Source: Halichondria panicea
Lineage: Eukaryota > Porifera > Demospongiae > Suberitida > Halichondriidae
NCBI RefSeq assembly: GCF_963675165.1
Contig: NC_087391.1
Span: 4,452,646-4,516,645 of the forward strand
DNA length: 64,000 nucleotides
Direction: 5' to 3'
The translations under genes and the position numbers were made by a program. How positions within the stretch are numbered: position 1 is the first letter of the stretch; every line of letters begins with the position of its first letter. The notes below the pieces were generated by a model. The model saw only the letters and a list, made by a program, of their open reading frames with translations, did no database searches and was not told the DNA's origin. Of the stretch, positions 33,401-42,400 are shown in pieces.

Positions 33401-36400
33401 TAACTGTAGCTTAACTATATGCAGGGCCACATAAAGAGATATTTTAAAGAAAGGCTATTGAAAGCTCACAAGAGGCTGTTTTCCTTGGCTCTGTCGGCCA
33501 TGTTATAAGTACATATGTATAAGTACATATGTTTGTTTTGTGAGAGTTTCCTGGCGGAAAAAATGCTTCGTGTAGCCCCTCCAAAAGTACCCTATAAGAG
33601 CAAGAACATGCACAGAGCTAGAAGTATTTTTGGAAGTTTAAGTTTATTATGTATGTGCTTCATTTAAACTTCTATTATGGGTTCACAAAAATTATTATAA
33701 GAAAATCATGAATTTCATGAGCAAACTGTTTACCGTAACCTTAACATCAATAGTCATGGTAGTCATCATAGTCAGAGTCATGGTAGTCATGGCAGTCATT
33801 ATAGTTATCATAGTCACGGTAGTCATAGGCATCGTAGTCGTCAGAATCATGGTAGTAATCATAGTCATGGTAGTCATCGTAGTAGTCTCTTTCGTCCTGG
33901 TCGTTTTCATAATCTCTTTTATCCTGGTGGTCTTCAAAGTCCCTTTGAGCCTGGTTGGCTTTATAATCTCTTTCATCCTGGTCATCTTCATAGTCCCTTT
34001 GAGCCTGGTCAGCTTTATTATTTCTTTGAGCCTGGTATTCTTCATAGTCTTTTTGATCCTGGTATTCTTCATAGTCCCTTTGAGCCTGGTATTCTTCATA
34101 GTCTCTTTGAACCTGGTGGTCTTCGTAGTCTCTTTGAGCCTGGTGGTCTTCGTAGTCTCTTTGAGCCTGGTGGTCTTCATAATTAGATATGTATTCTCTT
34201 TGAACCTGGTCTTCTTCATACTGTCTTTGAGCCTGGTCATCTTCATAATTATATATATAGTCTTCGTAGTTTATTTGAGCCTGGTCGTCTTCATAGTCGC
34301 TTTGAGCCTGGTATTCTACATGGTCACTTTGAGTATCGTAGTCTCTTTGATCCCAGTCGTCTTTATAGTCCCAGTCGTATTCATCATCGCTTTGAAAGCT
34401 GTACTTTATAGTGTGTCCTCGAGCATGATAATCTCTATAAACAGTGACAATTTTAACCTTTTTAAAAGCATCTCGTACCTCAAACAAGTGGGAAATTTTG
34501 ATATATGATTGCAGTCCAGCTATCCCCATGTATGACAACGGGACACTCTGTCCACAGATAGGGCAAGTGAGGGAGCGGGATGGTCCATCTTTAGTTACTA
34601 CTCTCACCAGGCACCACAGGGACTTACGAAACACGTGAGAACAAAACAAATTTTCAGTGAAAGGCTCAAAAGGATACATTTAACGTTCCAGTTTATTAAA
34701 AAAAAAAGACATCGATTTTAGTAGCAAAGTTGAGTTGCATTTTCGAATTCCTTCACCGTGTATCTGGGTAAAAACTATAGGTTGTAAAATAATAGGTAGA
34801 TCTATCAATATTAATTTCACTAACTGTATATAACTAGAGTACTTATGTATTTTGTGTACCTTTGTATTAGATGAGTTGAAGCACACACAAATATTAAAGA
34901 ACACGCCTATATTTATAATAGCTCACATGATTCTCAAGAGCTATGAATAATCCTAATGGAATTCCTAAATCAACACAGGTATATAAGTATTGTATTTACT
35001 TGATTAAACGCCTGGGCGTTTATTTCAGATCGAAGTCTTTAGAGGGGGCGTTTAAACGAAGGGCGTTTAATCCAGGAGGGCGTTTATTGTTATTCTATAC
35101 TGCCATGCTTGCAACTGGGTTCCATGTGCTATTTCAGCTCCACCCACAGTGCCACGCCCCATAAATGGGCGATTATTTAAGATGGGCAAAGACAGAGCTT
35201 TTACCCTGGGTGTTTATTCAAGGAGGGCGTTTAATCAAGTAAATACGGTACTCAACTTTACTTTTTAGCTACAGGTGTAACTAACCATCTATTCACACAG
35301 GTACCTCCCTGTAGGTGTGCGACTGTATGCGATTGTGCACTGTGCACTGTTAGCTTTAGTTACATATTGCTTTAATTGTCTTAACCATTACAGTGGAGCC
35401 TTAATTGTCCGAACATCTTGTGTCCCCACCTCATCCGGATGGCTAAAATCTTCGGGTACCCTAAATCGAGCCACACCCATCAAATTCGAGTAGCCTCTGC
35501 ATGCAAACTCAGCAAACAATGTCCAGAGCTCTTACAAATGTACTAGTCTTGAACATAATGCATCAGTGGACAGAACTAGCCTCTACACAGGCTCTCCTTT
35601 TTCTCACAATTGTTCAATTAATATCGAAGATAAAAAGTTTTAATTGGAGAAATTATAAGGAAAGAAATAGAGGTAGGGTTAGGAAAAAGGAGAGCCTGTA
35701 TCGAGAAGGGTGAAAATGAGCATGGGCTAGAGATGTTGGGCTAACGTAGAGATCATGACCAATATAAAACTTTGCCTGCCTAGCCTGACCAAGCCTTGAT
35801 ATATAGATCTAGAAGAACACTAAGTCTAAGAGAACAACCATGCACCCGGCTATAATATATCACTCAGGCTTGTTCTAAACTTTATATAAAGGACAGATAA
35901 TCTTTCTGTATAGGCTCCATGCATACAACTTGCGATCTATTACATGACACATTATTATACTAAAGCCTATTTGTTTTGAGTTAGGCCCCAGAAGGTACCG
36001 TATAGCGCGAAATTTTCGAGGCACTTATTTTTCGTGGATTGGCCTCTAAAAGCCATTTCGTTGCACAATGTTCACGGAATGACTGCTTACCGGAAGCCAC
36101 ACCTTTAGCATGATACAGTAGAACCTCGATTATCCGGACACCTTGGTTCCAGAAGCAGGCCGGATAAGTGAATATGCCGGATAATTGAATAGATAAACCA
36201 CGCCTTGATCCACCCACTTTATTGATAACAGCAGTGCCACATGGTTGTCTGCGCATGCGCAGAAGATAAGCAGACATGTCTCCATAGTAACAGCTGCAAC
36301 GCGCATTTGAGGGACACGCCCATTTTCTGAATATTAAAAAGAAAACTGGCAAGCCAGATAATAATCGAGGTATACCGGATAGGAGGGCCGGATAATCGAG

Positions 36401-39400: not shown

Positions 39401-42400
39401 GTTCATGCACTTGTGGTACAATGTATGCAATTCCACTAGCAAAGACTTTGTGGAATAATTATGATAATTATTTCCAGTACAGCAGCTGTTATTATTGATA
39501 TCATACCAGGATATGGTAGCAATATCACCAAGAGTCTATAATAAAAGAGAGAGTATCAAATAATAAAGTATTACCTTGCATCAGATGTATTCGGAAGGTA
39601 ACGTGGCTTCCTGCTTGATAACCGACCAATCCAAGCGCCTGGAGCCGCCACTTGCCCCGAGGCAGCAATAATGTTATTGCCAAATTGTCATTATTGATCA
39701 CACGTTTCAGACAGGAAGTCACATCTGATGCACAGTATGCATGCACTCGATACTCTTTCTCTCTTTTGTTATGGACTCTTGATATCACCCAAGCGGGCAG
39801 TTTTACCTAAAGCACCACCTACCACCCTTGAATTTTCATCCCTTCTATAAAAACAATATACATTTTGAAGTTATTTGCGGTTTGAATATCATCAAAATAA
39901 TGGTCTACTAATTAAGGAACGTGGGGAAAAATGATACAATTGTAACTGCAGCTTTTATGACGTCATGCCCTCGTGCTATACAGCTACTCTCGCACGTGGT
40001 GAGTAAAATAACCTATACTAAATCAATGGAATTCCTTTTACAAATGTATACACTGTCAATAATTATCATTAAAAAAAATCATCATAGTTGTATCATAAAA
40101 ATAATTTTTCTGTTGACCCTGTAGTATGTGAGTGATAATGGTTCAGTTTGGTCTAGAACACTTTTAAACTTTGCTTGGCAACAATCAATGAGTCATTATG
40201 ACCCCATATATGGAGGAGCATTCTATCTGTGGTAATTATTAACACAGGTATTCATGTATACTTTTTAGCATACGGTGTGCTTTAATCCACACTGGTACTG
40301 CCTGTGCGACTGTGTGCAGTCGAGCATTGTGCACTTTATACGAAAACTAAAGTTTGTAAGACAGTTGTGATTACATTGTACATATAGTATTCATCGTCAC
40401 TTTCTTCAGGAGGGAGGTCAGTGAGTGTGGTTGCATGAATGAGGAGAGTCACTAGGGGGTGGAGATAGTTGTGTGGATCAGGATGTGTTATACAAATGGG
40501 CAGTCGTGCACTATGCACTTATCAGGCAAATAAGTGCATTTTTTGTTTAATTAGCCTGGAATAATTATAGCTGTTAATCATCGTCACTTTGAGTGTAGTC
40601 GTCTTCATAGTCACTTTGAGCGTGCCGCTCATAGTCCTGGTCGTCTTCATAATCATTTTGATTCTGATCGTCTTGATCGTCACTTTGACCCTGGTCGTCT
40701 TGATCGTCACTTTGGTTCTGATCGTCACTTTGGTACTGATCGTCTTGATCGGCACTTTGGTACTGATCGTCTTGATCGTCACTTTGGTACTGGTCATGTT
40801 GATCGTCACTTTGGTCCTGATCATATTGATCGTCACTTTGGTACTGATCGTCTTGATCGTCACTTTGGTACTGGTCGTCTTGATCGTCACTTTGGTCCTG
40901 ATCATATTGATCGTCACTTTGGTACTGGTCGTCTTGATCGTCACTTTGGTACTGGTCGTCTTGATCGTCACTTTGGTCCTGATCATATTGATCGTCACTT
41001 GGGTACTGATCGTCTTGATCTTCACTTTGACTCTGGTCGTCTTGATCGTCACTTTGGTACTGGTCATCTTGATCGTCACTTGGGTACTGATCGTCTTGAT
41101 CTTCACTTTGACCCTGGTCGTCTTGATCGTCACTTTGGTACTGGTCATCTTGATCGTCACTTGGGTACTGATCGTCTTGATCTTCACTTTGACCCTGGTC
41201 GTCTTGATCGTCACTTTGGTACTGGTTATCTTGATCGTCACTTGGGTACTGATCGTCTTGATCTTCACTTTGAACCTGGTCGTCTTGATCATCATTTTGA
41301 GTAGGGGCAAGTTTAACTTTTTTAAATGCGTCTTGTAACTCAACCAACTGGTCAGTTTTGAGATCTGATTGCAGTCCAGCTACTCCCCTTTTTGTCAGTG
41401 GGACAGTGTTTCGACAGAATGGACACTTCAAGGAGCTTCCATCCTTGGTCACTACTTTCTCCAGACATGGGGAGCAAAATACGTGAAAACAAGGCAAGAT
41501 TTTCGGTTGCTTGAAAGGCTCAAAACATACAGAACATTCGAGTTGATCATCGAGTTTCTTGAGAGCTTCTTTTATAGTCCCTTCAGCCATTTTAGTAGCG
41601 AAAGTTGCGTTGTGTTTCCTACATTTTATAAGAACAAGTTTGTCCAGATTGTTTGTTAGCATACATGCATCATAAATGAAAACAAAATTGGCTCAAGTAA
41701 GTTGAAATACCTTTAGAAATGGCGTGATTTGTCCACCTCTGGTCTTGCACACATTAAATAATAAATTGCCTGATAGCAGCTCACATGATTTTTTTAGTGG
41801 TTATGAATACCCTCTCTGATTATTAATTTTATATTATGTAACAATCTCGAGTTCATAAATACACTTATGGTGACAATTCACCTGTCTGTGAAATCACAAG
41901 AGTGTTTATTGATATAGTGTAGTCTCGAGGCCAGACTCCTTAGGGGAGAGAGTCTGATCAACTTAATGTCCAAAAAATATGGGTGTGGGGTTGGTAACAA
42001 TACTGAACTTGCATCCCTTCTACATTTGGAATGTGGTTTACTAAAGAATGCAGGGAAACGGAAAAATATTATAATCGCGGCTATAAGTCGTTTATAACGT
42101 CATGCCTGTACAGCTACTCTCGCGCGTGGTGAGTAATTATACTTGTCATTTCATAGTTGTATCATACGTGCTTTCAATTATAATTTGCTATTGACCGTAT
42201 ACAGAGGATTTCAGGTTGTCTGGCAGAAGTGCAGTCAACCATGACCACACGCAATTAGTGGTCATGGTTGACTGCACTTCGACTTTTAACTTGAGCCAAC
42301 CAACCTGAAATCTTCTGTAGAGTAATAATAGTTCAGTTTGAATGGTTCAGTTTGGTCTAGAATACTTTTAAGAAATTCGTGCTATGCTCAGCAACAATTA

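What the first reader, a model, noticed from the sequence alone, without database searches (positions are those of the whole stretch)
33747..41590. RING proteins with long acidic 9-residue repeat tails
Three neighbouring genes pair the same RING and linker with tails of tandem units: [13 protein letters not shown], [23 protein letters not shown], and SDDQDDQYQ. The shared starts, RING and KKV junction tie them to the adjacent TRIM-NHL gene, so the B-box-to-NHL part seems to have been replaced by a fast-evolving acidic repeat. I know of no described family with this layout. Acidic disordered tails could act as a substrate lure or a condensate scaffold; that is inference.
Basis: partly seen in the sequence, partly recalled or inferred. 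Interest (0 to 1): 0.7.

Follow-up and report, generated by a model that had tools for sequence, protein, structure and literature searches.

The report
TRIM-derived RING genes with acidic tails
In one animal genome a ubiquitin-ligase gene lost most of its body and gained a long, acidic, lysine-free repeat tail; one of three such neighbouring copies looks intact, and whether it is used is untested.

Summary
The three tails exist and are related at the DNA level, so they most likely descend from one RING-plus-tail chimera. Only one of the three "genes" is intact. Gene C (41590-40574, minus strand, 338 aa) joins a complete C3HC4 RING and linker to 245 lysine-free residues. These are mostly units of SDDQDDQYQ: 97 D, 71 Q, net charge about -102. 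Gene B has all eight zinc ligands, but its tail lies in another frame after an eight-A run at the junction. Gene A has lost three of eight zinc ligands, with a stop inside the RING region.

The "replacement" idea is well supported: behind C lies a fossil of the last NHL codons, 3' UTR and 3' flank of the neighbouring TRIM-NHL gene T. Searches of the 131 Mb genome found the tails nowhere else. Of the 42 closest other RING relatives I read 38; all run into a B-box.

Long open tails are not evidence of coding: the repeats are open in four of six frames. Selection on C's RING is marginal (omega 0.38, p = 0.036 against 1; 0.064 and 0.19 with fewer copies). Mechanism is inferred: most likely a minimal RING E3 whose tail holds basic clients electrostatically and cannot itself be ubiquitylated on lysine.

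The parts
40574..41590 (-). Gene C: intact 338-aa ORF, RING (19-59), linker to about 92, acidic tail 94-338; stop 40576-40574
   Evidence: Pfam zf-C3HC4 E 3.2e-9, 36.9 bits; best PDB sequence match TRIM2 RING, E 7.1e-17, residues 9-84
40637..41299 (-). 27-bp minisatellite coding the SDDQDDQYQ units of C (24.9 copies, TRF score 857)
   Evidence: 23 regex units listed; all 18 matches in the genome to the unit with up to 3 mismatches lie in this array
39954..40231 (-). Fossil of a TRIM-NHL 3' end behind C: NHL C-terminus, stop and 3' UTR (40231-40137, 74%), 40097-40082, 3' flank (40006-39954, 81%), collinear with T 42454-42091
   Evidence: E 1.9e-17, 0.008 and 7.4e-10
38021..38302 (-). Gene B, RING part: 93 aa with 8 of 8 zinc ligands, ended by TAA after the A8 run at 38033-38026
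   Evidence: Pfam RING families
37564..38031 (-). Gene B, tail frame: 155 codons (HTHSEDEYY and [14 protein letters not shown] units), not in frame with the RING part
   Evidence: no Pfam match
33747..34679 (-). Gene A: 310-aa frame, RING 5' half destroyed (stop upstream; first, second and fourth cysteine lost), tail of [13 protein letters not shown] units and a D/Y-rich end
   Evidence: no Pfam match
42357..44528 (-). Gene T: full TRIM-NHL, 723 aa in one ORF (RING, B-box, filamin, NHL), closest relative and presumed model of the ancestor

Best explanation
A tandem copy of a TRIM-NHL gene lost about 1.8 kb (B-box, coiled coil, filamin, most of NHL). Just after the RING linker it acquired a 27-bp minisatellite in frame, giving a RING-plus-acidic-tail protein. 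That chimera was duplicated locally. C stays intact; B and A are broken or decaying relatives. Most likely function of C (inferred): a minimal RING E3. The RING and flanking helices recruit E2~ubiquitin. The 245-residue, lysine-free, strongly acidic tail takes over from the lost NHL as a flexible electrostatic holder of basic client proteins, and cannot itself be ubiquitylated on lysine. Shown: origin from a TRIM-NHL gene, intact frame of C, intact ligands, tail composition, broken state of A and B in this assembly. Inferred: expression, E3 activity, client type, function of the tail. My confidence is about 0.85 for the origin, about 0.5 that C is a working RING protein, and about 0.2 for the client-holding role.
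For: Origin: fossil 3' end behind C. Tail DNA relation of A, B and C, and no match elsewhere in the genome by DNA. A common origin of A, B and C next to T fits the codons better by 6.2 log units than the one alternative tried, which puts B with the C3 copies (one start point each). Intact C: eight of eight ligands, no stop or frameshift after about 44 derived substitutions; a substitution-only simulation of 45 random changes gives this in 1.1% of runs, and 36 changes in 2.6%. Omega on the C branch 0.38, below 1 at p = 0.036. C's RING also lacks one lysine codon of T (FCKSPC to FCSPC), which gives the usual C-x2-C spacing (recalled). Tail: 245 of 245 residues lysine-free, 104 D+E, 71 Q, 1 Arg. 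Linker charge +1 in C and +2 in A against a median of -3 (range -5 to 0) in 43 relatives.
Against: The selection signal on C's RING is marginal: p = 0.064 without A and 0.19 without A and B, and the simulation is post hoc because C was noticed for being intact. The synonymous-change test on the tail units does not show constraint in the acidic frame (C: P 0.14; A: P 0.73). Two of three copies are broken. Protein searches with each tail did not find the other two tails, so their kinship rests on DNA and on the shared junction. Linker charge in B is -2, inside the range of relatives; the RING core shows no charge rise in C; over residues 7-91 the charges of C, A and B (+3, +4, +5) lie inside the range of 42 relatives (-5 to +5). 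The CK2-like pattern (recalled) S/T-x-x-D/E occurs at only 5 of 28 S/T in C's tail. No expression data.
Confidence: 0.5

Rival explanations
1. All three are decaying TRIM duplicates with a minisatellite; C is simply the least decayed and makes no protein of consequence. Open tails follow from a 27-bp unit without a stop.
For: A and B are broken. Arrays are open in four of six frames. Tail variants show no clear constraint. Omega of B (0.63) and A (0.73) is not below 1, and that of C is marginal.
Against: C keeps 8 of 8 ligands and an open frame after about 44 changes (P about 0.01 for 45 changes); B too keeps all eight ligands and an open RING frame after 49 derived changes. The chimera persisted long enough to be duplicated and diverge by 28-35%.
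Confidence: 0.35
2. B is also a working RING-plus-tail gene: the extra A in the A8 run is an assembly error or a common variant, or slippage on the A run makes both RING-only and RING-plus-tail products.
For: The break lies exactly in an A8 homopolymer between two open frames; eight of eight ligands are kept in B.
Against: The last dozen codons of B's tail are also shifted relative to C by an indel (read by eye); omega of B is not below 1 (p = 0.25). No reads are available.
Confidence: 0.2
3. C is a regulator of full TRIM-NHL proteins: RING and flanking helices without coiled coil and NHL pair with T's RING and poison or retarget it, the tail being only a solubility tag.
For: C residues 9-84 match the solved TRIM2 RING constructs. 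C and T are 75% identical over a 101-residue match, and many TRIM-NHL-like copies are present as partners.
Against: No dimer was modelled, and the single-chain model is poor (AlphaFold mean pLDDT 38.8). The linker has changed in charge relative to the relatives, as for changed rather than kept contacts.
Confidence: 0.15
4. Autoinhibition as in MDM2: the acidic tail folds back on the RING's E2-binding face until a basic partner pulls it away.
For: MDM2's acidic domain with its zinc finger lowers RING activity and E2~Ub binding (PMC9366199, section 7 read). Linker charge rose in C and A.
Against: In that paper the acidic domain alone (GFP-AD, added in trans) had no effect; Pfam shows no second zinc finger in C. 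The RING core of C is not more basic than that of T (+2 against +3).
Confidence: 0.1

Closest known systems
TRIM-NHL proteins (TRIM2/TRIM3/TRIM56-like), here gene T and its many relatives in this genome
   Same: RING and linker: C 75% identical to T; best PDB match TRIM2 RING
   Different: C has no B-box, filamin or NHL match and no room for a coiled coil; these are replaced by the acidic tail
Disordered E3s of the San1 type
   Same: RING plus long, apparently disordered, lysine-free sequence (PMC4782732, abstract read; lysine deserts PMC10169902, abstract read)
   Different: San1 (by that abstract) carries short substrate-interaction stretches; C's tail has no I, F, W or M, one L and one V, and is a minisatellite product
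MDM2/MDMX (RING with a disordered acidic domain)
   Same: RING and acidic low-complexity region in one chain
   Different: not among the 60 PDB matches shown of 117; no second zinc finger in C; the tail is C-terminal and repetitive
TRIM5-cyclophilin fusions (recalled, not looked up)
   Same: a TRIM gene whose effector domain was swapped
   Different: there a folded domain was retroposed and B-box and coiled coil were kept; here a repeat replaces everything after the RING and linker

Membership tests
TRIM / TRIM-NHL family (definition recalled) | C3HC4 RING at the N-terminus | tested here: met
   C and B met: Pfam matches above cut-off, eight ligands; A not met
TRIM / TRIM-NHL family (definition recalled) | B-box zinc finger(s) | tested here: not met
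   11 Pfam families at E<=0.1 for C, all RING-like, no B-box; T has it
TRIM / TRIM-NHL family (definition recalled) | NHL repeats | tested here: not met
   none in C; only a broken fossil of the NHL end behind C's stop
TRIM / TRIM-NHL family (definition recalled) | coiled coil for dimerisation | tested here: not met
   after the linker C goes straight into the repeat array, which has 1 L, 1 V and no I, F, M or W in 245 residues; no coiled-coil predictor was run
San1-type disordered E3 | RING plus long lysine-free sequence | tested here: met
   C residues 94-338, 245 residues without Lys
San1-type disordered E3 | short substrate-binding stretches (taken here as hydrophobic) embedded in disorder | tested here: not met
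   tail has 0 I, F, W, M; 1 L; 1 V of 245; no binding-site predictor was run
San1-type disordered E3 | long intrinsic disorder | tested here: inconclusive
   composition and coil prediction point that way, but the model is poor throughout (mean pLDDT 38.8)
MDM2-like acidic-domain E3 | acidic region contacts the RING and lowers activity | not testable with these tools
   needs an E2 discharge assay
working RING E3 | eight zinc ligands with C3HC4 spacing | tested here: met
   C and B 8 of 8, A 5 of 8 (read by eye)
working RING E3 | E2 binding and ubiquitin transfer | not testable with these tools
   bench assay needed

The most novel reading that the evidence does not exclude
Within a greatly expanded TRIM-NHL repertoire, a coding minisatellite has replaced the substrate-reading domains and works as a fast-evolving, lysine-free electrostatic substrate lure, diversified by repeat turnover between tandem copies: a ubiquitin ligase whose specificity part is a repeat array.
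Probability: 0.12. Interest if true: 0.65.

Novelty: new variant of a known kind. Interest (0 to 1): 0.36.

Why it matters
It is a clear snapshot of an E3 gene exchanging its folded substrate-reading part for a repeat-born tail, with the fossil of the lost part still behind it. If C is expressed, it gives a test of whether a bare RING plus a lysine-free acidic repeat suffices as a ubiquitin ligase, and of how such tails arise and decay. If it is not, it shows how easily repeat tails pass for genes.

Tried and rejected
Tail origin from T's own coding sequence: the best local match of the 27-bp unit (three copies) to T scores 19, against a mean of 17.5 and maximum of 23 in 100 codon-shuffled copies, 31 of which reach 19. 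Stretches of the rest of the window reach 24, on the minus strand at 39901 (just behind C) and 16901; no control was run for these. The origin of the repeat stays open.

Tails elsewhere: protein searches with the tails of C, A and B found each tail itself and, for C, two weak D-rich matches (29% and 38% identity, E 0.002 and 0.004); they did not find the other two tails. DNA searches with the unit found C's array alone, and with C's array found C, A and B alone. The DNA tool skips simple repeats, so absence elsewhere is not proven.

Other RING genes with acidic tails: among 50 ORFs with a RING-like cysteine pattern in loci L001-L061 (C's two loci left out; T is among them) the highest D+E content in any 60 residues is 0.27, against 0.45-0.48 in A, B's tail and C. 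In the separate list of 21 loci, which overlaps these and includes the six, 11 had no ORF that fits the pattern (among them four of those six), so that check is thin.

Relatives in other collections: viral contigs, none (4 pattern matches, 0 confirmed). Genome contigs, one match of about 34 residues in a bacterium at E 1e-5 out of 46 pattern matches, taken as chance and not followed.

Structure: AlphaFold with three window proteins (C, T and B's RING) gave mean pLDDT 38.8, pTM 0.19; no fold search was made with it. A tree of 47 RINGs does not resolve A, B and C, which sit on long branches. An intron at the B junction was considered by eye and dropped for want of a convincing acceptor in frame.

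Print: nothing like this layout in the listings. The library lacks most subscription papers, so this is not proof of novelty.
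Full report
WHAT IS THERE. On the minus strand of the window lie, in order of transcription, T (44528-42357), C (41590-40574), B (38302-37564) and A (34679-33747). T is a complete TRIM-NHL gene of 723 aa in one ORF, with RING, B-box, filamin and NHL matches in Pfam. C is an intact 338-aa ORF: a C3HC4 RING (Pfam zf-C3HC4, 36.9 bits, cut-off 21), a linker that ends in KKVKLAPTQ, then mostly units of SDDQDDQYQ to the stop. B has a RING with all eight ligands, but the RING frame stops at 38023-38021, right after an A8 run; the tail frame, 155 codons, starts at 38031 and is one base out. 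In A the frame opens only after a stop inside the RING region; three of eight ligands (first, second and fourth cysteine) are gone and Pfam finds nothing.

THE TAILS ARE RELATED, BUT THEIR OPEN FRAMES PROVE LITTLE. DNA aligns between C and B (72% over 519 columns including the RING) and between C and A (65% over 851). With RING and linker left out, the tails still score far above controls: 0 of 200 codon shuffles reach the score for C-A, C-B or A-B, and 1, 0 and 0 of 200 shuffles that keep the 27-base period. A search with C's array finds A and B (E 5.8e-28 and 9.9e-17) and nothing else. Protein searches with single tails did not find the other two. The chimera thus most likely arose once and was then copied. 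But the arrays are also open, wholly or mostly, in a second minus frame and two plus frames, as expected of a 27-bp unit without a stop. I looked for constraint in the acidic frame by classing the distinct variants between units. In C, 4 are synonymous against 2.3 expected (P 0.14) and 0 are stops against 1.1 expected (P 0.29). In A, 4 are synonymous against 4.4 (P 0.73) and 0 stops against 2.0 (P 0.08) (22 of 23 C units and 13 A units; one C unit with a deletion left out; B not tested). This is inconclusive.

ORIGIN FROM A FULL TRIM-NHL GENE. Behind C's stop, at 40231-40137, lies a degenerate copy of the last NHL codons, stop and 3' UTR of T (74%, E 1.9e-17), followed by two collinear pieces of T's 3' flank (40097-40082, 16 bases, E 0.008; 40006-39954, 81%, E 7.4e-10). 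No such fossil was found behind A or B. C is therefore a former full TRIM-NHL gene in which about 1.8 kb after the linker was lost and about 0.75 kb of repeat tail plus some 340 bp now stands. Where the repeat came from is not known: T contains no better seed than its codon shuffles.

HOW SPECIAL IT IS IN THIS GENOME. A search of the 131-Mb genome with C's RING and linker returned 150 scored matches of 260 candidates. The 44 best rows (E up to 1.1e-30, 61% identity or more) are C, B and 42 others, T among them. I read 38 of those 42: all run from the linker into a B-box-like cysteine pattern (by eye). The other four were not read; their open frames of 730-768 aa fit full TRIM-NHL genes. Tail searches by unit with up to three mismatches (18 matches, all in C's array), by DNA and by protein found no other copy, apart from two weak D-rich matches.

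IS C UNDER SELECTION? C is below 1 at p = 0.036; B (p = 0.25) and A (p = 0.44) are not; C does not differ from the background (p = 0.13). The inner branches differ from the background (p = 0.007) but not from 1 (p = 0.57). The result for C weakens to p = 0.064 without A and p = 0.19 without A and B; no correction for several tests was made. As a second look, I placed random substitutions on T's RING: with 45 changes (C has 44 derived ones) 25% of runs have no stop, 3.9% keep all eight ligands and 1.1% do both. Indels are not in this simulation and the gene was picked for being intact, so the figure is only a rough guide. Taken together, C was probably a working RING gene for much of its life, and may still be.

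MECHANISM (INFERRED). The RING and flanking region match the solved TRIM2 RING constructs over residues 9-84, so E2 recruitment is plausible. C lacks one lysine codon of T, which turns FCKSPC into the usual C-x2-C. The tail has 245 residues without lysine and with one arginine, 104 acidic residues and 71 glutamines. Long lysine-free disordered stretches are a known trait of San1-like E3s and other ubiquitin-system proteins, where they limit unwanted ubiquitylation (PMC4782732 and PMC10169902, abstracts read). Unlike San1 the tail has almost no hydrophobic residues, so binding of misfolded clients is unlikely; an electrostatic hold on basic clients is the best guess (about 0.2). MDM2-like autoinhibition is a rival, weakened because MDM2's acidic domain alone did not inhibit in trans (PMC9366199, section 7). 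The linker became more basic in C (+1) and A (+2), but hardly in B (-2), against a median of -3 in 43 relatives; over residues 7-91 all three lie inside the range of relatives. The AlphaFold model is too poor to use.

VERDICT. A real, single-locus, TRIM-derived RING-plus-acidic-repeat chimera with one intact copy. It is not a TRIM by definition, since B-box, coiled coil and NHL are missing. No description of the layout turned up in the listings. Expression and conservation decide whether it is a new small E3 type or an ageing duplicate.

Noticed in passing
G000 contigs C3, C5, C11, C17 (places): Large TRIM-NHL-like expansion: dozens of RING-headed single ORFs, mostly of about 720-810 aa, in tandem blocks, for example C3:5.88-6.31 Mb and C11:0.94-1.29 Mb; the C3 copies read have closely similar RINGs.
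   Followed up: partly
36111-36411 and, inverted, 39359-39053: A ~300-bp element with 25-27-bp terminal inverted repeats (MITE-like) lies on either side of gene B (87% to each other); 39 other full-length copies were scored in the genome at 89-92% identity, out of 653 candidates.
   Followed up: partly
32440-32552 and, inverted, 36107-35996: A 114-column inverted repeat pair (89%) on either side of gene A, one copy abutting the MITE-like element.
   Followed up: no
37083-37192 and 44925-45039; 37321-37399 and, inverted, 45080-45002: Further repeat pieces shared between the flank of B and the upstream side of T (80% and 91%).
   Followed up: no
33747-33883: The end of A's tail changes from the 27-bp unit to a D/Y-rich stretch of short GACTAY-like steps.
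   Followed up: no
52388-52887: A second, unrelated minisatellite (26-bp and 124-bp periods, CCACACACACCACTCTCTCACCCACT).
   Followed up: no
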